A stretch of 63,572 nucleotides of DNA from Armatimonadota bacterium. Lineage in GTDB: Bacteria; Sysuimicrobiota; Sysuimicrobiia; Sysuimicrobiales; Kaftiobacteriaceae. Location: positions 10,006 through 73,577 of the forward strand of contig JAVHLZ010000012.1 of the NCBI GenBank assembly GCA_031081675.1, written 5' to 3'. A program made the translations under genes and the position numbers. Every line of letters starts with the position of its first letter. Position 1 is the stretch's first letter. This document shows positions 1 through 11,398 of this stretch, in pieces. Below the pieces are notes generated by a model. The model ran no database searches, was not told the DNA's origin, and worked only from the letters and a program-made list of their open reading frames with translations.

Positions 1-876
1 TTTGGAGGATGCGACCACCTCGAAGTACGGGGCCAGTTCCGCGAGCAGCTGGGGCCGGCTCGGCGGAGGGCCATCGAAGCCCAGCCAGTCGGCCATCTTC
101 GAATACACCTGGCTCAGCTGGTTGGCCACCGTGCGCGGGCTGCGGCCCAGCCGGCGAGCGATCCCTGCGTTGTCCAGACCCTGACAGGCCAGGCGCGCCA
201 CCTCCCGCTCCGCCGGGGTGAGCCAGCGCTCCACGAACTCCCGCCGGCGCCGCATGCGCTCCCCCCGGACGATCTCCTCGTACCGACGGATGGCCTCCAT
301 GGGGTCGTCCAGCTCGGCCAGGACCGCCAGCATGAGGCCGGAGTCGGTCCAGCGCAGCACGGGCACGGGGACCAGGTACGCGGTCTCGCCCGGCTGGAGG
401 TGCATGCGCCGCTCGGCCCCGGGCTGCCAGCCTTCGCTCAGCAGGTGCCAGGCGCGATCCTCCGGCCCGAACAGGAGCTGGGCCACTACCATGGCCGCCA
501 CCCCCATGACCTTCCGACCTCCGGCCAGGGACAGGTGGACCACCGGGTGGGCTCGTTTGCCGTCCCGCACCGCGCGGTACAAGGCGGCCAGCAGCCCGCG
601 GACGTCCGCCTCGGAGCGGAAGTCCTCCAGAGGGCCGTCCGGACCCCGTACGGGTACCGCGCGCAGGTGCACACCAGGGTAAAGGCCTGAGGCGAACTCC
701 TCCCGGATGGCCCGCAGGCCTGCCTGCACCGCCTTCGAGGCAGTGTGGACTACGATGACTTCACGGATGGAGCGGCGCTGCGCCAGAAGCAGATCAAGGG
801 TGATGGTGACCACCTGGGGCTCGTGGCCTAGCGTGGCCACGAGCCCCTCCCCGCGGGACCCCATGCGGCCCCTCAT
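1..876 (-). CDS. NE0113-type CARF domain fused to LuxR-type HTH (partial, 3' end cut)
   Basis: No other gene in the window resembles this one. 292 codons are visible and the frame is still open at base 1. Residues about 12-150 look like the CRISPR-associated NE0113 (PF09623/TIGR02584) CARF family: an N-terminal strand and loop VATLGHEPQVVTITL, then IREVIVVHT, and the signature HLSLAGGRKVMG (114-125) followed by LLFGPEDRAWHLLSEGW. Residues about 220-262 are a LuxR/GerE helix-turn-helix, with LTPAEREVARLACQGLDNAG and then IARRLGRSPRTVANQLSQVY. No phospho-receiver domain is present. Known CARF domains bind cyclic oligoadenylates made by type III CRISPR-Cas10, so I infer a ligand-responsive transcription factor. 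I chose ATG at 876, with AGGA about 6 nt upstream; ATG at 864 is also in frame. The open frame continues upstream, so a longer N-terminus is possible. Domain calls rest on motif recognition only. Confidence 0.75.
   Translation of the reverse strand, partial: MRGRMGSRGEGLVATLGHEPQVVTITLDLLLAQRRSIREVIVVHTASKAVQAGLRAIREEFASGLYPGVHLRAVPVRGPDGPLEDFRSEADVRGLLAALYRAVRDGKRAHPVVHLSLAGGRKVMGVAAMVVAQLLFGPEDRAWHLLSEGWQPGAERRMHLQPGETAYLVPVPVLRWTDSGLMLAVLAELDDPMEAIRRYEEIVRGERMRRRREFVERWLTPAEREVARLACQGLDNAGIARRLGRSPRTVANQLSQVYSKMADWLGFDGPPPSRPQLLAELAPYFEVVASSK
816..847. repeat. Perfect 13-bp inverted repeat inside the CARF-LuxR gene
   Basis: Arms GGGGCTCGTGGCC (816-828) and GGCCACGAGCCCC (835-847) are perfect complements around a 6-nt loop TAGCGT. 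The repeat lies 29-60 nt downstream of the proposed ATG and encodes the conserved first CARF strand and loop. It could fold as an mRNA hairpin near the start codon or serve as a dyad operator. It may also be a by-product of codon choice in GC-rich DNA. Confidence 0.6.
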
Positions 877-1215
877 GGCGGTCCTGGGCTGCGCGGCTGG
901 CAGCACCCTGCCCCCCGGTGCGGGATCCTGCAAAAGGCTAGCAATGCTGTTCCGTATCTGCCCTGGTAGTTCCTGCCCTGGGATGGTGATTCGCTTTGCA
1001 TGAACACCATCCGGAGAACGGTCGGGGGCCGCCAGCACGGCGCCCGTCCGTGCAGAACCACAAGCCAAGCTCGGAGATGTGCGTTTGTAGGCAACGCCAC
1101 CCGCAGCGCCACCGGCTGTCACCGGATACGCGATCTCTGCGAGTTCTCGACCCGGACGGGAGACAGCGTTATCGGGGGAAGGCGAAGACTACGAGATCCT
1201 GCGTCTGAAGCGGGT
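877..1215. other. Non-coding stretch between the CARF-LuxR gene and tRNA-Ile
   Basis: I see no convincing gene here. The frame of the CARF-LuxR gene stays open on the minus strand, but no stretch of it is recognisable. I found no clear -35/-10 pair for that gene. Its transcript could start at the tRNA promoter or at an unrecognised site. Confidence 0.4.
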
Positions 1216-1292
1216 TGGTGGGCCCTCGTGGACTCGAACCACGGACCTCACCCTTATCAGGGGTGCGCTCTCACCACCTGAGCTAAGGGCCC
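1216..1292 (-). tRNA. tRNA-Ile (anticodon GAT), CCA encoded
   Basis: The minus strand reads GGGCCCTTAGCTCAGGTGG at the 5' end, an anticodon arm with CTGATAA (anticodon GAT), a T-loop GGTTCGAGTCC, and a 7-bp acceptor stem GGGCCCT/AGGGCCC. The discriminator A and the CCA tail are encoded (1216-1219). All four arms close. A promoter is readable just upstream at 1312-1341. Confidence 0.95.
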
Positions 1293-1376: not shown

Positions 1377-1612
1377 TCCCCTCACCCTCACCCTCTCCCC
1401 AACGGGGAGAGGGAACGGGATAAGGGAGCGGGTTTATTCGTGGCTGCGGTGCGCGCCCCTCACCCTCGCCCTCTCCCCAACGGGGAGAGGGATCGAAGTC
1501 AAGGGGAAAGAGGGTGGGGAGTCTCCTCACCCTTACCCTCTCCCCACAGGGGAGAGGGACCGAAGTCGAGGGGAGAGGGATCGAAGTCAAGGGGAGAGGG
1601 GATCGAAATATA
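1377..1612. repeat. Cluster of dispersed palindromic repeats (CTCACCCT...CCCTCTCCCC-N-GGGGAGAGGG)
   Basis: Three copies of a unit reading about CCTCACCCTCACCCTCTCCCC, then AACGGGGAGAGGG, lie at about 1379-1413, 1458-1492 and 1525-1560. Each contains the inverted repeat CCCTCTCCCC/GGGGAGAGGG and can form a hairpin. The third is followed by short direct repeats of AGTCRAGGGGAGAGGGATCGA (about 1560-1606). The cluster sits between the tyrS stop codon and the tRNA-Ile promoter. It resembles REP-like intergenic elements rather than a CRISPR array, because there are no unique equal-length spacers. Confidence 0.8.
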
Positions 1613-1649: not shown

Positions 1650-2867
1650 TCAGCGCAGGCGGATCCGGACGAAGCGGCGGCGGCCGACCCGCAGGACCAG
1701 GCCGTCGCGCACCTCCACGTCGGCGTCGATATCGGAGATGCGGCTGCCGTCTATGCTGACCCCGCCCTGGGCGATCAGCCGCCGGGCCTCACTGCGCGAG
1801 GGGGCCAGCCCCGTGCGGACCAGCAGCCCCACCACCGGCAGCCGCCCCGCGCGCAGTTCCCCCCGTCCGATGGTCGCTTCGGGGACCTCGTCGGGGAGCT
1901 CCCTGTCCACGAAGATCCGCTCGAAGGCCCGCTCCGCCCGCTCGGCGGCCTCCTTTCCGTGCCAGACGGCCACGATCTCCCGCGCCAGGCGGGCCTTGGC
2001 GTCCCGGGGGTGCACGGTGCCGTCCTGCAGCCCCCGCTCCAGGGCCCGCACTTCCTCCAGGGGCACGTCGGTGCAGAACTCGAAGTAGTGGGCGATCAGT
2101 CCGTCGGGCAGGGACATCACCTTCCCGTACATCTCCTCGGGCGGGTCGGTGATCCCGATGGCATTGCCCAGCGACTTGCTCATCTTCTCCACGCCGTCCA
2201 GCCCCACCAGCAGGGGCGTCAGCACCACCACCTGGGGCTCCTGCCCGAACTCCCGCTGCAGCTCGCGGCCCATCAGGTTGTTGAACTTCTGGTCGGTGCC
2301 GCCCAGTTCCACGTCGGCCTGCAGCTGCACCGAATCCATGGCCTGGCACAGCGGGTACAGCAGTTCGTGCAGGAAGACGGGCACGCCCGCGCGCATCCGC
2401 GTGGCGAAGTCGTCCCGCTCCAGGATGCGGGCCACGGTGACCTTGCTGGCCAGGCGGATGACGTCCTCAAACCTCATCGGCGCCAGCCACTGGCTGTTGA
2501 ACACCACCCGGGTGCGGGCGGGGTCCAGGATCCGGCTGTACTGGTCCCGGTAGGTGGCGGCGTTGCGCTCGATCTCCTCCCGGGTCAGCATCGGCCGGGT
2601 CTTCTTGCGTTCGCTGGGGTCGCCGATCATGCCGGTGAAGTCGCCCACCACCAGGATGGCCTCGTGGCCCAGGTCCTGAAACTGGCGCAGCTTGCGCAGG
2701 ACCACCGCGATGCCCAGGTGAATGTCGGGCGCGCTGGGGTCGATACCCAGCTTCACCCGCAGGGGACGGCCCTGCCGCAGCTTGGCCAGCAGGTCCTCCT
2801 CGGTGATGATCTCCGCTGTGCCCCGGCGCAGCAGGGCCAGCTGCTCTTCCGGAGAGAGCGCGCCCAT
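1650..2867 (-). CDS. tyrS: Tyrosine--tRNA ligase
   Basis: The product charges tRNA-Tyr with tyrosine in the cytoplasm. It is 405 aa, a normal length for the TyrS/TyrZ class I synthetases. The N-terminal Rossmann domain shows LGIDPSAPDIHLGIAVVLRK at the HIGH site (H50-L-G-I53), then GDFTGMIGDPSERKKTR. The KMSKS loop is intact at about 228-232. The C-terminal S4 RNA-binding domain (about 345-400) includes SRSEARRLIAQGGVSIDG. One oddity is that the last position of HIGH is Ile instead of the usual His (codon ATC). An extended -10 box sits only 10 nt before the ATG. It is the last gene of the mutS2 direction; the downstream flank is repeat DNA. Confidence 0.96.
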   Translation of the reverse strand: MGALSPEEQLALLRRGTAEIITEEDLLAKLRQGRPLRVKLGIDPSAPDIHLGIAVVLRKLRQFQDLGHEAILVVGDFTGMIGDPSERKKTRPMLTREEIERNAATYRDQYSRILDPARTRVVFNSQWLAPMRFEDVIRLASKVTVARILERDDFATRMRAGVPVFLHELLYPLCQAMDSVQLQADVELGGTDQKFNNLMGRELQREFGQEPQVVVLTPLLVGLDGVEKMSKSLGNAIGITDPPEEMYGKVMSLPDGLIAHYFEFCTDVPLEEVRALERGLQDGTVHPRDAKARLAREIVAVWHGKEAAERAERAFERIFVDRELPDEVPEATIGRGELRAGRLPVVGLLVRTGLAPSRSEARRLIAQGGVSIDGSRISDIDADVEVRDGLVLRVGRRRFVRIRLR

Positions 2868-2877
2868 GGTCGCGACG

Positions 2878-2886
2878 ATTATACCA
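2878..2886 (-). promoter_or_regulatory. Extended -10 promoter of tyrS
   Basis: The minus strand reads TGGTATAAT (complement of 2878-2886), an extended -10 element. The hexamer ends 10 nt before the tyrS ATG, so the expected transcript leader is only a few nucleotides. I see no clear -35. Confidence 0.55.
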
Positions 2887-2913
2887 GCGCCGGCCGGGCC
2901 AGGCGAGGCTGCC

Positions 2914-5268
2914 TCAGGCGGTGGCCAGCTCCACGACGGTGACGCCGTCGCCGCCCTCGCCCGGCCCGCCCGGGCGGAAGGCCCGCACGTGGGGGTGGTC
3001 GCGCAGGAACTGGTGCACTGCCCGCCGCAGCGCCCCGGTGCCCTTGCCGTGGATCACCGTCACCTGCGCCAGCCCCGCCAAAAACGCGTCGTCCAGGTAC
3101 CGGTCCAGCACGGCTGTGGCCTCGTCGGCGGTCAGGCCCCGCAGGTTCACCGACAGCGGCACCGCGGCAGGTGCCTGGCGCAGCACCGGCTCCTCCCGCG
3201 CCGGGCCGGCCACCGCGGCCGGCGGGGGCGCCGCGCGGAGGGAGGCCAGGGGCGCGCGGACCCGCAGGGGGCCGGCCTGGACCTCCACCTCCCCACGCCC
3301 GTCGGGGCCGGCCACCACCGTGCCGATCCGCCCCAGGGGGACCACGTAGACGTCCTGGCCGGGATGCGCCTCCTGCAGCGGCTCGCCCGCGGGCTCGACC
3401 TCCGTGCGCGCCCGCAGGTCGTCGGCCAGCTGCCGCAGCCGGTCGCGGGCCTGCTGGACCGTGCGGGGGTCCGGACTCTCCCGGAGGGCGCGCACCAACG
3501 CGTCCACTTCGCTCCGGGCCGACCGCAGCAGGGCCTCCACCTCCTCGCGCGCCTTCCGCAGGGCCTGCGCCCGCTCGGCCCGCAGCCGCTCCAGCTCCTG
3601 GCGCGCCCGGGCCAGCACGGCCTCGGCCTCCTCCCGCCGGCGGGCCGCCTCGGCCCGGTCGTGTTCGGAGGCCCGTCGGTCGGCCTCAAGGTCGCTGAGG
3701 ATCCTGTCCAGCACGCCGGCCTGGGGGCCCAGCAGCTCCCGGGCCCGCTCCACGATGTCTGCCGCCAGCCCCAGCCGCCGGGCGATGTCCAGGGCGTTGC
3801 TGCGCCCGGGCAGGCCGATCCGCAGCCGGTAGGTCGGGCGCAGGGTGACCGGGTCGAACTCCACCGAGGCGTTCTCGATCCCGGGATGCGTCCAGGCCAG
3901 CGCCTTGAGTTCGTTGTAGTGGGTGGTCACCACCGTGCGGGCGCCGCGGCCGTGCAGGTGCTCGATGACGGCCCGCGCCAGGGCCACGCCCTCGGTCGGG
4001 TCGGTCCCGGCGCCGATCTCGTCGAGCAGGACCAGCGCCGACACGCCGCCGGCGGCGGCGGCGCGGTCCACCTGGTGCAGGATCTGCACGATGGCGCCCA
4101 TGTGGGAGGAGAAGGTGCTCAGCGACTGCTCGATGCTCTGCTCGTCGCCGATGTCGGCGAACACCTGCGCGAACACCGCCACCTCCGAGCCGGGCTCGGC
4201 GGGGATGAACAGCCCGGCCTGGGCCATCAGGGTCAGCAGGCCCACGGTCTTGAGGGTGACGGTCTTGCCGCCGGTATTGGGGCCGGTGATGACCAGGGTC
4301 GTAAACCGCTCGCCCAGCTCCACGTCGATGGGGACCACCTCGCCCGCCAGCAGCGGGTGGCGGGCGCGGCGCAGCCGCAGCACGCCGTCGGTGCGCACCG
4401 CCGGCGCCGCAGCGCCCTGGGTGGCCCCCAGGCGCGCCCGGGCCACCGCGCAGTCGAGGTGGCCCAGGATCTCGTAGGCGGCGGCGATGCCGTCGGCCTG
4501 CTGGCCCACCTGGGCCGACAGCTCGCGCAGCAGGCGCTGGACCTCCTGGCGCTCCTCGATCTCCAGCTCCCGCAGACGGTTGCCCAGGGGGACGACGACC
4601 AGAGGCTCCATGAAGGCGGTGGCGCCGCTGCTGGAGTGATCGTGGAGGATCCCGGGAAACTGCCCCTTGAACTCCGCCCGTACCGGCACCACGTAGCGGC
4701 CGGCGCGGGTGGTGATCACCGCATCCTGCAGCATCCGGCCGTACGGGCCTCGGATCACCGCCTCCAGGGTCTCCCGCAGGCGGCCGTGGACCGCCTGCTG
4801 CTCGCGGCGCAGGCGGGCCAGGTGCGGGCTGGCGGCGTCGGGGATGGTGCCGTCGGGGGCGACGGTGCGGCGGATCGCCGCCTCCAGCGCCTCGAACGCG
4901 CCCATCCGCGCCGCCTGCTCGGCCAGGGCGGGGGCGCGCGCCCGCCGGGCCAGCACGTAGCCCCGGCACTGGCGGATCGTGGCCAGGGTGTCGGCCAGCG
5001 CCAGCAGGTCGGAGGGGTCCAGCGCGGCCCCCAGGCGGGCCCGGTGGAGCATCTCCCGCACGTCGGCGGTGCCGCGCAAGGGAATCTCTCCCTCGGCGAC
5101 CAGCGCCGCGGCTTCGGCGGTCTCGGCCAGGGCGGCGCGGACCCGCCCGGGATCCGGGGACGGGCGCAGGGCCTCCGCCAGCTCCCGGCCGCGGGCGGTC
5201 ACCGTCAGCGCCGCCAGACGGGCGACGATGGCGGGGAACTCCAGCACCCGCAGGGTGCGGTCATCCAC
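2914..5268 (-). CDS. mutS2: MutS2 ATPase with Smr domain
   Basis: 784 aa, the usual MutS2 length. MutS2 proteins are DNA- or ribosome-associated ATPases (anti-recombination; ribosome-collision rescue in Bacillus). The N-terminal core begins [18 protein letters not shown]. The ATPase shows Walker A TGPNTGGKTVTLK and Walker B ALVLLDEIGAGTDPTEGVAL. A long Glu/Arg-rich coiled coil follows (about 500-600). The C-terminal Smr domain has VNLRGLTADEA and VIHGKGTGALRRAV. There is no mismatch-recognition domain, as expected for MutS2. I chose GTG at 5268: it overlaps the upstream stop (GTGGATGA) and has GGAGG about 9 nt before it. An upstream ATG at 5310 lies inside the preceding gene. Confidence 0.95.
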   Translation of the reverse strand: MDDRTLRVLEFPAIVARLAALTVTARGRELAEALRPSPDPGRVRAALAETAEAAALVAEGEIPLRGTADVREMLHRARLGAALDPSDLLALADTLATIRQCRGYVLARRARAPALAEQAARMGAFEALEAAIRRTVAPDGTIPDAASPHLARLRREQQAVHGRLRETLEAVIRGPYGRMLQDAVITTRAGRYVVPVRAEFKGQFPGILHDHSSSGATAFMEPLVVVPLGNRLRELEIEERQEVQRLLRELSAQVGQQADGIAAAYEILGHLDCAVARARLGATQGAAAPAVRTDGVLRLRRARHPLLAGEVVPIDVELGERFTTLVITGPNTGGKTVTLKTVGLLTLMAQAGLFIPAEPGSEVAVFAQVFADIGDEQSIEQSLSTFSSHMGAIVQILHQVDRAAAAGGVSALVLLDEIGAGTDPTEGVALARAVIEHLHGRGARTVVTTHYNELKALAWTHPGIENASVEFDPVTLRPTYRLRIGLPGRSNALDIARRLGLAADIVERARELLGPQAGVLDRILSDLEADRRASEHDRAEAARRREEAEAVLARARQELERLRAERAQALRKAREEVEALLRSARSEVDALVRALRESPDPRTVQQARDRLRQLADDLRARTEVEPAGEPLQEAHPGQDVYVVPLGRIGTVVAGPDGRGEVEVQAGPLRVRAPLASLRAAPPPAAVAGPAREEPVLRQAPAAVPLSVNLRGLTADEATAVLDRYLDDAFLAGLAQVTVIHGKGTGALRRAVHQFLRDHPHVRAFRPGGPGEGGDGVTVVELATA

Positions 5269-6181
5269 CGGCGGGTCCCTCCAGCCAGGCCAGCAGCGCG
5301 GGCGCCACATCGGTCAGGCTGCTGATGCGGGCGCCCACCTCGGACCGGCCCGCGCCGACCAGCAGCGTGGGCACGGGGTTGCGGGTGTGGGTGGGTGTGG
5401 TGGCGTCCTCGATGTTGCCGTGATCGCTGGTGAGCGCCACCAGGGTGGAGGCCAGGTCGGCGGCGTCCAGCACGCCGGCCAGCAGCTCGTCCAGCATCTC
5501 CACCGCCCGCCGCCGGTCGAGGGCGACCCGCCCGTGGGCAGCCAGGTCGGTCAGGAAAAACTCGAACACGGTCAGGTGATGGGACATGGCAAGCGCGGCC
5601 AGGTGGCGCCCGCACCGGCGGGGCGTGACCGCCGGCACGTCGTATCCCCACGCCCGCGGGCGGGCGTTGGTCAGGTCGTGAAAGACCGCGCGCCCGGCGC
5701 GCAGGTCCTCCACCCCGCGCAGGGTCACCCCGGCCGCCAGGGCGGCGTAGGTGATGGCCGCGTGGCGCAGCCGGCCGCCGGCGACGGCGGCGAAGTACTC
5801 GGGGGTGTAGGCGTTGGCCAGGGCTGCCTCCCGGCCGCCGGCCCGCACGCGGGCGAACAGGCTGGACGTCTCCAGCAGGCCCCGCAGGGCTGCGGTGGGA
5901 TAGGCGGTGATGTGGCGGCCGGCCAGGCGGGCGGCGTTGACGCCGGTGAGGAGCGCGGTCTGCCCGGTGGCGCTCTGGGGCAGACCCTCCACCCCCAGGG
6001 TGGCGTCGGTGGGCACCAGCAGGACGCCGTCCCGTTCCAGCGGACCGGTGATCCCCGCCAGCGGCCGGCCCAGCAGGGCCCGCAGGCACGGGGTGCGGGC
6101 GGCGGCCACGGGGTTGGTCTGCGGATCGTCCGGGCCCAGCCCCAGGCCGTCCACGAACAGCAGCAGCGCGCGGCGGTTCAC
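5261..6181 (-). CDS. AlkP-superfamily metalloenzyme, phosphoglycerate mutase-like
   Basis: 306 aa starting at GTG 6181, which overlaps the mpg stop (GTGA). The N-terminus [14 protein letters not shown] carries the metal-binding Asp of the alkaline phosphatase/iPGM superfamily. [17 protein letters not shown] matches the catalytic Ser/Thr region (S-A-T-G-Q). The C-terminal SDHGNIED followed by [13 protein letters not shown] gives the metal-binding Asp-His and His. It is shorter than GpmI (about 510 aa) and lacks an obvious large phosphatase insertion, so it belongs with uncharacterised PF01676-type metalloenzymes. The substrate is unknown. Its position between mpg and mutS2, with overlaps on both sides, says only that it is co-transcribed with repair genes. 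Confidence 0.8.
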
Positions 6182-6870
6182 GGCCGGCTGACGCAGGGAT
6201 GGCCCGGGATGTAGTAGCGCCACAGCCGGTCGGTGGCCACCCGGATCCCGATGCGGGGACTGCGGGCCACCGGCACCGGGCCGGTGCGGCCCCGGGCCAC
6301 GTACAGGGGCGGGCGGGTGAGGTCGGCCCCGTTGTGGGCGGCGGTGATGCCCAGGGCCTGGGTGAGCCGTCCCGGCCCCGACGCCAGCAGGCGGACGTCG
6401 TCGGTGCCGCGGCGGCGGCGCATCAGCTCGATCCCCTCCACCGGCTCCAGGGCCCGCAGGAGGACCGCCCCGGCCCGTCCCGGAGGTTCGGTCACCACGT
6501 TCACGCAGTAGTGGTTCCCATAGGTGAAGTAGACGTAGGCCGTCCCCGGCCGCCCCCACATGATGGCGCTGCGGGGCGTGCGCCGGTACGCGTGGCTGGC
6601 CGGGTCGCGGGGCCCCCGGTAGGCCTCGACCTCCACGATGCGCCCGGCCACGACGCCCTCGGGCGTCTCGTGGACCAGCAGGTGACCCAGCAGGTCCCGG
6701 GCGACCTGCAGCGTGCTGCGGGCGAAGAACCGACGCGGAAGGGGGACATATCGGCGGGCCCGCGGGCGCGCGGGACGGCGGGGGCGCGGCGCGGTCACCC
6801 CTCGGGCGGGCGGTCGCGCGGGGAGACGTGACGGCGGCGCCGCAGACCTCCGGGCCAGGAGTTGCCTCAT
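6178..6870 (-). CDS. mpg: 3-methyladenine DNA glycosylase (AAG/MPG family)
   Basis: This monofunctional glycosylase removes alkylated purines from DNA in base-excision repair. [17 protein letters not shown] starts the fold. [20 protein letters not shown] contains the family's catalytic Glu region. [18 protein letters not shown] holds the intercalating Tyr strand, and [15 protein letters not shown] closes the fold. The frame is open to 6960, but that extension is intergenic repeat DNA. I chose ATG 6870, which has AGGGGAG 6 nt upstream; ATG 6876 is the alternative. The product is 230 aa with a basic, Arg/Pro-rich 45-residue N-terminal extension. The stop overlaps the next gene's GTG. Confidence 0.93.
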
Positions 6871-6904
6871 CGCCATCTCCCCTTGTTCCCGCCTCACCGT
6901 ACCG

Positions 6905-6960
6905 ACGCTCACCAGTCCAACGCTCAACGTGTCAACGCTCCACCGTTTCACCATCCGCAA
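6905..6960. repeat. Intergenic CAACGCT/CAACGTG repeat patch (copy A)
   Basis: A run of degenerate short units (TCCAACGCTC, TCAACGTG, TCAACGCTC, ACCGTTTCACC) lies between polX and mpg. The same motif (GTTGAAGCGT and its complement) recurs at about 23224-23335 and 34339-34435. Confidence 0.6.
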
Positions 6961-8673
6961 TTACCGCCGCAGCCAGTCGCGCAGCTCCGCCAGCGGGCGG
7001 GTGTTCAGGACGTGCTCTTTCTGGAGCCAGGCGCGGCGGGCGATGCCGATGCCGAACTGCATGTACCGCAGCTGGTAGCGGTTGTGGGCGTCGGTGCTGA
7101 TCACCAGCATCACGCCCCGCTCGCGGGCCATCTTCGCGTGGGTGTCGTTGAGGTCCAGCCGCTCGGGGGAGGCGTTGATCTCGACGGCGGTGCCGGTGCG
7201 GCGGGCGGCGTCCAGGATCGCCTCCATATCCACCTCGTAGGGATCCCGCTGGCCCAGCAGCCGGCCCGTGGGGTGGCCCAGGATGTCGGTGTGAGGGTTC
7301 TCCAGGGCCCGGATGATCCGCTCGGTCATCTCCTGGCGGCCCATCTTCAGCCGCGAGTGTACCGAACACACCACCACATCCAGCTCCCGGAGGACGTCGT
7401 CGGGATAGTCCAGCCGCCCGTCGGGCAGGATGTCGCACTCGGTGCCCATGAGCACGGCGATCCCCACCTTGTCGGAGACCTGGCGGGCCACGCGGGCATG
7501 GGCCCGCAGCTCGTCCACGGGGACCCCGCCCACGAACTTCAGGGACTGGGAGTGGTCGGTGACGGCGATGTACTCATAGCCCAGCGCCCGGGCGGCCCGG
7601 GCCATCTCCTCCAGGGTATCCGCGCCGTCGCTCCACCGGGTGTGCATCTGCAGGTCCCCGCGGATGTCCGCCAGTTCCACCAGGCGGGGCAGCGCGCCCC
7701 GCTCGGCCAGCTCGATTTCTCCCTGGTCCTCCCGGATCTCGGGGGGGATCCAGGGCAGCCCCACGGCCGCGTACACCTCCTCCTCGGTGCGCCCGGCGAT
7801 GCGCTGGTCCCCGGGCGTGCGGAACACCCCGTACTCGTTGATCTTCAGCCCCCGCCGCACCGCGCGCTCCCGCAGCTTCACGTTGTGGTCCTTGCTGCCG
7901 GTGAAGTACTGCAGCGCCGCCCCGAAGCACTCGGGCTCCACCACCCGCACGTCGGCCTGGATGCCCACGTCCAGGATCACGCTGCTGCGGGTGGGCCCGC
8001 GGGCCAGGACCTGGCGCACCCGGGGGAAGGTGGTGAAGACCTCCATCACCGGATCGGGCCGGGCGCTGGTGACCAGGATGTCGATGTCGCCGATGGTCTC
8101 CTTCATCCGGCGCAGGCTGCCGGCCAGGCTGATCTGGTCGACCCCCGGCGTGGCCCGCAGGGCCTCCAGCAGATCCTGAGCGTGCGGCAGGACCTGGCCG
8201 ATGGGGAGGCGCTCCTTGGTCCGCCGCAGCAGCGCGATCCCCTTGAGAATGTTCTCCTCGGTCTTGGCGCCCATGCGCGGCAGGGTGCGGATGCGGCCTT
8301 CCCGGGCCGCCTGCTCCAGCTGATCAATGGTGGTGATGCCAAGCTTCTGATAGAGCAGCAGGGCGGTCTTGGGGCCCACCTCGGGGACGGACATCAGGGT
8401 GGTCAGTCCTGGAGGCAGCTGGGCTTTCAGCTCCTCGTAGTACTTGCAGGTGCCGGTCTCCAGGTACTCGCGGATCTTCTCGGCGATCCCCTTGCCGATG
8501 CCGGGGATCTCCTCCAGCTCGCCCCGGGCGGCGATGGCGGCCACGTCTTCGGTGAGGCCTTCCAGCGCCCGGGCGGCGCGGCGGTAGGCGGTGATGCGGA
8601 AGGGGGATTCGCCCTTGATCTCCAGCATGTCGGCGATGTCGTTGAACATCGCCGCGATTTCCCGGTTCTTCAT
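6961..8673 (-). CDS. polX: DNA polymerase/3'-5' exonuclease PolX
   Basis: 570 aa, the standard bacterial PolX length. The polymerase beta-like half has an 8-kDa domain (MKNREIAAMFNDIADMLEIK), helix-hairpin-helix motifs EIPGIGKGIAEKI and VPEVGPKTALLLY, and the palm motif GSLRRMKETIGDIDILV, whose GS and DxD bind nucleotide and metal. The C-terminal PHP domain (about 340-570) begins DLQMHTRWSDGADTLEEMA and continues GYEYIAVTDHSQS; it is the Mn-dependent exonuclease in this family. It likely acts in base-excision gap filling, in keeping with mpg next door. I chose ATG 8673; the longer frame to 8937 is unsupported. Confidence 0.95.
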   Translation of the reverse strand: MKNREIAAMFNDIADMLEIKGESPFRITAYRRAARALEGLTEDVAAIAARGELEEIPGIGKGIAEKIREYLETGTCKYYEELKAQLPPGLTTLMSVPEVGPKTALLLYQKLGITTIDQLEQAAREGRIRTLPRMGAKTEENILKGIALLRRTKERLPIGQVLPHAQDLLEALRATPGVDQISLAGSLRRMKETIGDIDILVTSARPDPVMEVFTTFPRVRQVLARGPTRSSVILDVGIQADVRVVEPECFGAALQYFTGSKDHNVKLRERAVRRGLKINEYGVFRTPGDQRIAGRTEEEVYAAVGLPWIPPEIREDQGEIELAERGALPRLVELADIRGDLQMHTRWSDGADTLEEMARAARALGYEYIAVTDHSQSLKFVGGVPVDELRAHARVARQVSDKVGIAVLMGTECDILPDGRLDYPDDVLRELDVVVCSVHSRLKMGRQEMTERIIRALENPHTDILGHPTGRLLGQRDPYEVDMEAILDAARRTGTAVEINASPERLDLNDTHAKMARERGVMLVISTDAHNRYQLRYMQFGIGIARRAWLQKEHVLNTRPLAELRDWLRR

Positions 8674-8815
8674 GGCGGATCCGGACCTGCCCGGGGCCGG
8701 CCCGCGCGGGCCTCGGCCCCGATCCGGCGGTCCCGAGGGATGGTTTCGCAGCGCCGCGTGACCCCCCTCCGCCCCGACGTGACCCTCCCCGTGGGCGCGC
8801 GGATGCGGCAGGCTC

Positions 8816-9325
8816 CTAGAAGCGGGTCGGCTCGGCCCCAAAGGGCCGCAGGAACGGAGGCAGGACCTTCGCCAGGGCGCGGGCGCCGTCCCGGTGCACC
8901 CGGATCGCGTGCGGGGCCAGCACCGAGCGCGCCGCATCCCGGGAGACCGGATCGTGCAGCGGGGTGGCCAGCAGCCACCCGAGCACCGCCGCCGACAGCA
9001 GCGCCGCCGCCGCCGCGCCCACCACCAGGCCGGCCAGGCGGGATGACACCGACGCCGATCCCCGCTCCAGGACGGCGCTGGCCAGCGCGCCCACGAAGAC
9101 GTACACGCCCACCAGCAGGACCGCGTAGGCCACCGCGCCCGCCCACGGCGCCGACAGCCGGACGGCGCGCAGGGCCAGGGCCAGCGACGGGTACCAGGCC
9201 GACGCCGCCAGGTATCCTCCGAAGACGCCCACCGCGCTCGCCAGGGCCACCCCCACGCCCCGGCGCAGGCCGCGCAGCGCCCCCAGCGCGAGGACGGCCA
9301 CGATGGCCCAGTCCAGCCAGGTCAC
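8816..9325 (-). CDS. cvpA: CvpA-family membrane protein
   Basis: 169 aa with four predicted membrane segments (about 5-35, 55-80, 88-105 and 115-130). It opens TWLDWAIVAVLALGALRGLRRG, the typical CvpA start followed by a Gly/Arg loop. Related proteins are needed for colicin V production in E. coli and envelope integrity elsewhere. The pheT-cvpA-polX-mutS2 order is common in Bacillota (often with zapA, absent here). The GTG at 9325 has no Shine-Dalgarno, but TATAAT lies 6 nt upstream, suggesting a leaderless transcript. Confidence 0.8.
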   Translation of the reverse strand: MTWLDWAIVAVLALGALRGLRRGVGVALASAVGVFGGYLAASAWYPSLALALRAVRLSAPWAGAVAYAVLLVGVYVFVGALASAVLERGSASVSSRLAGLVVGAAAAALLSAAVLGWLLATPLHDPVSRDAARSVLAPHAIRVHRDGARALAKVLPPFLRPFGAEPTRF

Positions 9326-9331
9326 GGACCG

Positions 9332-9337
9332 ATTATA
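9332..9337 (-). promoter_or_regulatory. -10 box directly upstream of cvpA (leaderless type)
   Basis: TATAAT on the minus strand (complement of 9332-9337) ends 6 nt before the cvpA GTG and 1 nt before the pheT stop codon. That spacing would put the transcription start at the start codon. No clear -35 is visible. Confidence 0.5.
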
Positions 9338-11398
9338 CTACCGGATCACGGCCCGCAGCCGCTGGGCCAGCGCCGCGGCGACGGCGGCCACCGCCGCATC
9401 CACGTCGTCGGCCGAGAGGGTGCGCTCCGGGGACCGGAAGGTAAGCGCATACGCCAGGCTGCGGTGGCCGGGCGGAACCGGAGGCCCGGTGTAGACGTCG
9501 AACAGATCCGCCGCTTCCAGGTACGGCCCGGCGGCGTCGGCGATGACCCGGCGCACGTCCGCCGCCGGGACGTCGGCGGCCACCACCACGGCCAGGTCGC
9601 GGCGCACCGCCGGAAACCGCGGGGGCGGGCTGAAGCGGGGGCTGAACACGGCCCGCGCGAGGATCGCCTCCAGGTCCAGGTGCGCCACGTAGACCGCGTC
9701 GGGCAGGTCGAAGGCCGCGGCCACCTCGGGGTGCAGTTCGCCCAGGCTGCCCGCCTCCTCCCCGTCCAGCACCAGCCGCGCCGCCCGGCCCGGGCGCAGC
9801 CAGGGCACCTCCGCCGCCGCGATCTCGGCGCCGGCGATGCGCAGTTCGTCCAGCAGCGCCTCGATGACGCCCTTGAGGTGGTAGTAGGACGCGCGGACCG
9901 CCTCCTCAGGGAGGTTCCACGCGCCGGCCATCAGCCGGCCGGTCATCACCACGCCCAGCCGGCGGCGCTCGGCGACGGCGTCCCCCGCGGGGTGGAAGGT
10001 GCGGCCGATCTCAAACAGGGGGACGTCGGTCACCCGCCGGCTGACGTTCGCCCGCGCGGCGTCCAGCAGGCCCACCAGAAGGGTCGTGCGGAGATGGGTG
10101 TGGTCGTCCACCAGGGGGTTGCGCAGGGCCACCATCTGCCGCCAGGGGTGCTCGGGGGGCAGCCGCAGGCGGTCCAGCGCCCGCGGGTGCGTCAGGGAGA
10201 TGGTAAGGGCCTCGGTGAGGCCGCACCGGATCAGGATCTCCCGCACCGCCGCCTCCGCCCGCAGCACGGGAGCCCGGGATCCCGGGGACGTCACCTCCAG
10301 CGGCAGGGTCTCGGGGATGCGGTCGTAGCCGTGGTGGCGGGCCACCTCTTCGATGACGTCTTCGGCGCGCTCCACGTCCCGGCGGAACGACGGCACCTGC
10401 ACCACCACCCGCTCGCCCGCCCGCCGGACGCCAAAGCCCAGGCGGGTGAGAATGGCCGCGCCCTCGTCGGGGTCGATCTCCACGCCCAGCAGCCGGCGGA
10501 CCTGCCCCCAGGCCAGGTCGACCGTCCGCCCCGGCTGAGGGTGCGGATACAGGTCCAGGGGCCGGGGCAGGACCCGTCCCCCGGCGACCTCCTGCAGCAG
10601 GCGCTGGGCGCGGGCGGAAGCCGCGGCCACGGCGCCCACGTCCACCCCGCGCTCGAACCTGGCGCTGCTCTCGGTGCGCACGCCCAGCCGCTTGCTGGTC
10701 CGGCGGATCTGCGGCGGGTGCCAAGCGGCGGCTTCCAGGAGCACCCGGCGGGTGTCCGGCCGGATCTCGGTGTCGGCGCCGCCGATGACCCCGGCGATGC
10801 CCACCGCCCGCTCGGCGTCGGCGACCACCAGGACCTGGTCGTCGAGGGTGCGCTCGACCCCGTCCAGGGTCACCAGGCGCTCGCCGGGACGGGCCAGGCG
10901 GACCACCAGCCGGCCTCCGCGGATCCGGTCGTAGTCAAACGCGTGCATGGGCTGGCCGAGCTCCAGCATCACGTAGTTGGTGACGTCCACCACCGTGTTG
11001 ATGCTGCGCACCCCGCACGCCTCCAGGCGCCGCGCCATCCATTCGGGCGACGGACCGACCCGCACGTCGGTGATCACCGCCGCCGTGAAACGCGGGCACA
11101 GCGCCGGTTCGCGCACCTCCACCTGCGCGAACGCGGACGTGGGCGGGCCCTCCCGCACCGGCTCCGCCGCGGGAACGCGCACCACCCCGCCGGTGGCGGC
11201 GGCCAGTTCCCGGGCCACCCCCAGGTGGCTCATCAGATCGCCCCGGTTGGCCGGGATCTCCAGGTCGAAGACGGCGTCGTCACCCGCCGCCTCCACCGCA
11301 TCCACGCCGATGCCCAGCATGGGCAGCCGCTCGGCCATCTCGCCCACCGACCAGGGAATGTCCACCAGTTCCCGCAACCAGGACAGCAGGACTTTCAC
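9338..11398 (-). CDS. pheT: Phenylalanine--tRNA ligase beta subunit lacking the tRNA-binding insert
   Basis: 686 aa against about 790-800 aa for most bacterial PheT. The product forms the alpha2-beta2 PheRS. The N-terminal strand MKVLLSWLRELVDIPWSVGEMAERLPMLGIGVDAVE runs almost directly into DLEIPANRGDLMSHLGVARE. The EMAP/Arc1p-like OB-fold that normally sits between these segments (about residues 40-150) is therefore absent. B3/B4 editing (SINTVVDVTNYVMLELGQPMHAFD), B5 and the FDX-ACB anticodon-binding C-terminus (FPAVRRDLAVVV) are present. There is no frameshift signature; the join is clean. It follows pheS by 42 nt. Confidence 0.95.
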   Translation of the reverse strand: MKVLLSWLRELVDIPWSVGEMAERLPMLGIGVDAVEAAGDDAVFDLEIPANRGDLMSHLGVARELAAATGGVVRVPAAEPVREGPPTSAFAQVEVREPALCPRFTAAVITDVRVGPSPEWMARRLEACGVRSINTVVDVTNYVMLELGQPMHAFDYDRIRGGRLVVRLARPGERLVTLDGVERTLDDQVLVVADAERAVGIAGVIGGADTEIRPDTRRVLLEAAAWHPPQIRRTSKRLGVRTESSARFERGVDVGAVAAASARAQRLLQEVAGGRVLPRPLDLYPHPQPGRTVDLAWGQVRRLLGVEIDPDEGAAILTRLGFGVRRAGERVVVQVPSFRRDVERAEDVIEEVARHHGYDRIPETLPLEVTSPGSRAPVLRAEAAVREILIRCGLTEALTISLTHPRALDRLRLPPEHPWRQMVALRNPLVDDHTHLRTTLLVGLLDAARANVSRRVTDVPLFEIGRTFHPAGDAVAERRRLGVVMTGRLMAGAWNLPEEAVRASYYHLKGVIEALLDELRIAGAEIAAAEVPWLRPGRAARLVLDGEEAGSLGELHPEVAAAFDLPDAVYVAHLDLEAILARAVFSPRFSPPPRFPAVRRDLAVVVAADVPAADVRRVIADAAGPYLEAADLFDVYTGPPVPPGHRSLAYALTFRSPERTLSADDVDAAVAAVAAALAQRLRAVIR

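What the first reader, a model, noticed from the sequence alone, without database searches (positions are those of the whole stretch)
1..876. CRISPR-type CARF domain (NE0113 family) fused to a LuxR-type DNA-binding domain
Seen: an N-terminal fold with HLSLAGGRKVMG and LLFGPEDRAWHLLSE, and a C-terminal LuxR/GerE HTH in one frame, with no receiver domain. Known: NE0113-type CARF domains accompany type III CRISPR and sense cyclic oligoadenylate; the CARF transcription factors I know of (Csa3 and relatives) carry winged helices. Inference: a second-messenger-responsive LuxR-like regulator that could couple phage sensing by Cas10 to transcription of accessory or host genes. I do not know a described system with this architecture. 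The regulated locus may lie just left of the window.
Basis: partly seen in the sequence, partly recalled or inferred. Interest (0 to 1): 0.92.

Follow-up and report, generated by a model that had tools for sequence, protein, structure and literature searches.

The report
CARF–LuxR regulator heading type III CRISPR
This gene encodes a protein that joins a sensor domain for the alarm molecules made by type III CRISPR to a LuxR-type DNA-binding domain, and it sits at the head of a type III CRISPR operon, so it is most likely a switch that turns phage detection into gene regulation, in a known but unstudied family that public databases label as a ring nuclease.

Summary
The protein is PF09623/CARF (E 5e-42) plus LuxR/GerE HTH (E 3e-8) in one frame; the AlphaFold model (pLDDT 88) matches solved CARF domains (Cad1, Crn1/Sso2081, Csa3) and FixJ. 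The window begins at a 100-N scaffold gap. A relative confirms the join.

The family is widespread: 57 of 400 sampled Chloroflexota genomes. Of those, 53 carry Cas10, against 51 of the other 343. 38 of 66 genes lie within 10 kb upstream of cas10 on its strand, across III-A, III-B and III-D-like loci.

CARF motif II (cOA binding) is kept; the ring-nuclease signature GxS/T is absent in 39 of 39. The likeliest function is a non-degrading cOA sensor that regulates its own type III operon. Ligand, operator and sign are inferred.

New are the LuxR output, motif-I loss, operon-head position, and one copy heading a DISARM operon in a genome without detected Cas10.

The parts
1..876 (-). CARF-LuxR gene, 292 codons seen; 3' end lost in the 100-N gap just left of base 1
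   Evidence: synteny with G035 across the gap
292..822 (-). CARF domain (PF09623), aa 19-195
   Evidence: E 5e-42; fold matches
805..837 (-). CARF motif I stretch ATLGHEPQVVT, aa 14-24; E19 stands where Sso2081 has Ser11
511..522 (-). CARF motif II GGRK, aa 119-122 (cOA binding)
223..303 (-). long helix aa 192-218 linking CARF and HTH, possible dimer helix
   Evidence: AlphaFold model
94..222 (-). LuxR/GerE-type HTH, aa 219-261
   Evidence: NarL and FixJ matches
877..1215 (.). upstream stretch between the gene and tRNA-Ile (1216-1292, minus strand), likely regulatory; holds an 8-bp inverted repeat 981-988/1005-1012 that may be chance (p about 0.2)
   Evidence: no sigma-70 consensus

Best explanation
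The protein is a one-component transcription factor for type III CRISPR signalling. When Cas10 of the neighbouring Csm complex sees phage RNA it makes cyclic oligoadenylate (probably cA4). The CARF dimer binds the ring through motif II without cutting it. The long helix passes the change to the paired LuxR-type HTHs, which bind DNA upstream of the gene and change transcription of the operon it heads (carf-luxR, small secreted protein, cas6, cas10, csm2-5, CARF-HEPN nuclease, cas1). Positive feedback that boosts the defence is my preferred sign. Shown here: the two domains, the fold, the position at the head of type III operons, the cyclase motif of the Cas10s, retention of motif II and loss of motif I. 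Inferred: ligand, dimerisation, DNA site, direction of regulation.
For: Domains above curated cut-offs; fold matches to cA4/cA6-binding Cad1, Sso2081, Csa3-cA4 and FixJ; type III-A locus on the same strand, join supported by synteny in G035; first gene before csm1 in Rhodothermus marinus; 53 of 57 carrier genomes have Cas10 against 51 of 343 others; 38 of 66 genes within 10 kb upstream of cas10 on the same strand; GGDD in all 16 linked Cas10s inspected; motif II kept and motif I lost; GerE match in 37 of 39 members.
Against: No ligand or DNA-binding data. No conserved operator found. G010 keeps an intact copy without detected Cas10, so the signal may not always come from a resident type III system.
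Confidence: 0.6

Rival explanations
1. It is a ring nuclease, as NCBI names its relatives, whose main job is to destroy cOA; the HTH only localises or autoregulates it.
For: NCBI product name 'CRISPR-associated ring nuclease' for the Rhodothermus relative; nearest solved sequences include Crn1/Sso2081; Csx14 is listed as a predicted ring nuclease (PMC12409355).
Against: Motif I GxS/T, held to mark degrading CARFs (PMC10018336), is absent in 39 of 39, while 5 of 6 canonical NE0113 proteins keep it. Csx15, a separate predicted ring nuclease, is often in the same locus.
Confidence: 0.12
2. It is a transcription factor, but its ligand is not cOA or its main targets lie outside the type III operon (other defence genes).
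For: Intact copies away from local Cas10: G010 at the head of a DISARM operon, G036 beside ureD, Chloroflexota loci with a Card1-like gene and csx15 but no nearby Cas10.
Against: Strong statistical link to Cas10 and operon-head position; motif II is kept even in G010.
Confidence: 0.17
3. The HTH is a structural module and does not bind DNA; the protein is a cOA sponge or an adaptor.
For: Many CARF effectors carry an HTH-like module between CARF and effector (PMC4012209).
Against: There is no further effector domain here; GerE is recognised in 37 of 39 members and A240 and T249 are invariant.
Confidence: 0.08

Closest known systems
PADLOC CARF3--CARF (PDLC01851, PDLC01855)
   Same: Full-length match, E 8e-113 for the window protein; 39 of 39 family members match.
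   Different: The label records only CARF; the LuxR output and function are not named.
Csx14 (TIGR03642)
   Same: CARF part, 82.7 bits for the window protein and 95.1 for L013.
   Different: The model covers only 124 positions of the CARF; treated in the literature as a predicted ring nuclease of the Crn1 family.
Csa3
   Same: CARF plus DNA-binding HTH; lacks the GxS/T motif and ring-nuclease activity (PMC8844856); fold match.
   Different: Csa3 has a MarR-like winged HTH and is tied to type I systems; here the HTH is LuxR-type and the link is to type III.
Crn1/Sso2081 ring nuclease
   Same: Closest solved sequence of the CARF part; motif II identical.
   Different: Motif I GTS replaced by G-x-E/Q; LuxR domain added.
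NarL/FixJ LuxR-type response regulators
   Same: Output domain by sequence and fold.
   Different: CARF takes the place of the receiver domain.

Membership tests
CARF superfamily, PF09623 (Cas_NE0113) | Pfam gathering score and CARF Rossmann core | tested here: met
   144.5 bits against 23; fold matches
NE0113 equivalog, TIGR02584 | score above 80.65 | tested here: not met
   31.3 bits
Csx14, TIGR03642 | score above 90.35 | tested here: inconclusive
   window protein 82.7 (below), L013 relative 95.1 (above), all 39 members match at E <= 0.001
Crn1-type ring nuclease | motif I G-x-S/T | tested here: not met
   G-x-E/Q/K/N in 39 of 39; NF040581 29.3 bits against cut-off 125
Crn1-type ring nuclease | motif II G-R-K | tested here: met
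   G120-R121-K122
Csa3 | CARF with winged HTH | tested here: not met
   HTH is GerE/LuxR by Pfam and fold; no TIGR01884 match for the window protein
LuxR/GerE DNA-binding domain | PF00196 above 23.5 bits | tested here: met
   33.7 bits; NarL, FixJ matches
PADLOC CARF3--CARF | full-length profile match | tested here: met
   E 8e-113, aa 10-287 of 292
cOA-responsive transcription factor | linkage to a cOA-competent type III system | tested here: met
   cas10 with GGDD in the same locus and in relatives
cOA-responsive transcription factor | cOA binding and cOA-dependent gene regulation | not testable with these tools
   needs biochemistry

The most novel reading that the evidence does not exclude
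CARF-LuxR proteins are a portable, non-degrading cOA switch that heads different defence operons: type III CRISPR in most genomes, Card1/Csx15 cassettes in some, DISARM in one. An RNA-guided alarm would then induce other defence systems at the transcriptional level.
Probability: 0.22. Interest if true: 0.8.

Novelty: new variant of a known kind. Interest (0 to 1): 0.57.

Why it matters
Most known outputs of type III signalling are destructive enzymes; the transcriptional branch is known mainly from Csa3 in archaea and the CalpL/T/S sigma cascade. Here a widespread bacterial family pairs the cOA sensor with a very well understood class of bacterial output domain and stands first in the operon, so feedback control of type III immunity becomes directly testable. 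It also suggests that the public label 'ring nuclease' for these proteins is wrong, which affects surveys that predict signal turnover from annotation. A compact cOA-responsive LuxR factor could also serve as a transcriptional reporter for RNA detection.

Tried and rejected
(2) Operator search: alignment of upstream stretches of near relatives and of a Chloroflexota subgroup, inverted-repeat scans and a promoter scan gave no conserved palindrome; the 8-bp repeat at 981-1012 has p about 0.2. Some Chloroflexota upstreams share a TGCTATCAT-like block, which looks like an extended -10 element, not an operator. (3) The idea that the N gap joins unrelated pieces was rejected: G035 has the same gene order with unbroken sequence across it. 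(4) A phage-borne origin was not supported: no match in phage records and no relative confirmed in viral contigs (only two short peptide patterns were used, so this is weak). (5) Csx15 as a partner in the window genome: not found in its phylum, but no control rang, so inconclusive. (6) Makarova 2020 (CARF classification) and Shah 2019 are not held, so I could not check whether they mention the HTH of this clade. (7) A dimer prediction was not possible; the model is a monomer.

Full report
1. Observation. The minus-strand frame from 876 to base 1 encodes 292 residues. Pfam gives Cas_NE0113 over aa 19-195 (E 5e-42, 144.5 bits against a cut-off of 23) and GerE over aa 219-261 (E 2.9e-8, 33.7 against 23.5). 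The quoted motifs are there. Comparison with sequences of solved structures finds the ring nuclease Sso2081 for the N-terminal part and NarL for the C-terminal part; with a nine-sequence profile these reach 1.4e-11 and 5e-6. AlphaFold gives a confident monomer (pLDDT 88): a CARF core, a long helix 192-218, then the LuxR-type helices and a C-terminal helix. Foldseek against the PDB returns Cad1 CARF domains bound to cA4 or cA6, Sso2081, Csa3 with cA4 (6wxq) and FixJ.

2. What lies left of the window. The window starts at contig 12 position 10006 of a 2.29-Mb genome. Positions 9906-10005 are a run of 100 N, so the last codons of the gene are lost. Beyond it, on the same strand, follow the end of a small gene, then cas6, cas10/csm1 (HD domain, GGDD cyclase motif), csm2, csm3, csm4, csm5, a TIGR02710 CARF-HEPN protein and cas1, near the contig end. 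The scaffold join is credible: in relative G035 an intact carf-luxR (77% identical) is followed, without a gap, by the same small gene, by cas6 (76% identical) and by a broken cas10. The small gene encodes about 115 aa with an apparent signal peptide and no Pfam match.

3. Spread and linkage. In the window's phylum, strong relatives are found in 5 of 22 genera; one related record there is named Armatimonadota. Relatives also occur in a Peptococcaceae bin, an Anaerolineae bin and on two Rhodothermus marinus plasmids. In pRMAR01 the gene is the first before csm1-csm5 and starts about 110 bp after a 12-repeat CRISPR array. In the phylum of the Anaerolineae genome (Chloroflexota), 57 of 400 sampled genomes carry the family. 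Of these, 53 have a Cas10 palm domain at E <= 1e-8, against 51 of the other 343 (Fisher p 6e-32; related genomes are not independent). Of 66 genes, 45 have cas10 within 10 kb, and 38 of those are upstream of it on the same strand. Many of the rest lie on short contigs. The gene stands before csm, cmr or csx10-type modules alike, and Csx15, a predicted ring nuclease, is often in the same locus. All 16 linked Cas10s I inspected keep GGDD.

4. Sensor chemistry. In Sso2081, motif I (Gly9-Thr10-Ser11) positions the ring for cutting and motif II (Gly104-Arg105-Lys106) binds it and stabilises the intermediate; the authors support motif I as the sign that separates degrading from non-degrading CARFs (PMC10018336). 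Our alignment puts E19 on Ser11 and G120-R121-K122 on motif II. Across 39 members position 19 is Q, E, K or N, never S or T; R121 is kept in 38 and position 122 is K or R in all. Canonical NE0113/Csm6 proteins used as a contrast keep G-x-S/T in 5 of 6, one of them in the same R. marinus locus. I infer a cOA sensor that does not, or only poorly, degrade its ligand, like Csa3 (PMC8844856). The annotation 'CRISPR-associated ring nuclease' is then probably misleading. This is sequence inference, not assay.

5. Mechanism. The best-supported reading is a one-component regulator gated by cOA and acting on the operon it heads. Sign and operator are unknown: I found no conserved operator and no sigma-70 consensus. 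Positive feedback is a preference from the usual behaviour of LuxR-type factors, not a result.

6. Exceptions. G010 (four contigs, 97% complete) has an intact copy but no Cas10 by two searches. There the gene lies 152 bp upstream, on the same strand, of drmMII, drmA and drmB, a DISARM system. G036 has an intact copy beside ureD; Cas10 occurs elsewhere in that genome. Both branch beside the window's protein inside the type III-linked clade (support for the G010+G036 pair is only 89/78), so the relocation looks derived. Three Chloroflexota loci (L098, L099, L100) show carf-luxR with a Card1-like CARF protein and csx15 without nearby Cas10. One DISARM case is an anecdote until others are found.

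7. Known or new. The family exists as full-length PADLOC profiles named CARF3--CARF, matched by 39 of 39, and as Csx14 matches around the cut-off. Makarova 2014 predicted that NE0113-type CARF proteins without an effector regulate transcription. Hoikkala 2025 folds Csx14 into Crn1 and caps ring nucleases at 250 aa, which would leave these ~300-aa proteins out. The 2025 classification lists transcriptional regulators among cOA outputs. No paper in the library that I could find describes a LuxR-type output on a CARF domain; the 2020 CARF classification is not held, so this is a limited negative.

Noticed in passing
L026 (G010:C1) 2451-10929, minus strand: Intact CARF-LuxR gene 152 bp upstream of a DISARM operon (drmMII, drmA, drmB) in a genome with no detected Cas10.
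   Followed up: partly
L002 9639-9905 (minus strand, just left of the window gap); L025 about 10424-10768; L029 about 800-1100: Small conserved gene (about 115 aa, apparent signal peptide, no Pfam match) between carf-luxR and cas6 in three loci.
   Followed up: partly
L098, L099, L100: Cassettes of carf-luxR, a Card1-like CARF gene and csx15 with no Cas10 nearby.
   Followed up: partly
L029 (G035:C9) and L025 (G035:C1): G035 has one broken carf-luxR copy and one intact copy next to a broken cas10: the regulator outlives its type III locus.
   Followed up: partly
L031 12939-13980: Rhodothermus marinus plasmid: the CARF-LuxR gene starts about 110 bp after a 12-repeat CRISPR array.
   Followed up: no
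window 1378-1600: Several copies of a palindromic CCTCACCCTC(A/G)CCCTCTCCCCAACGGGGAGAGGGA-like intergenic repeat between tRNA-Ile and the tyrosyl-tRNA-synthetase-like gene.
   Followed up: no
L096 1406-3142: A 579-aa frame with two CARF-like matches lies beside a CARF-LuxR gene on the other strand.
   Followed up: no
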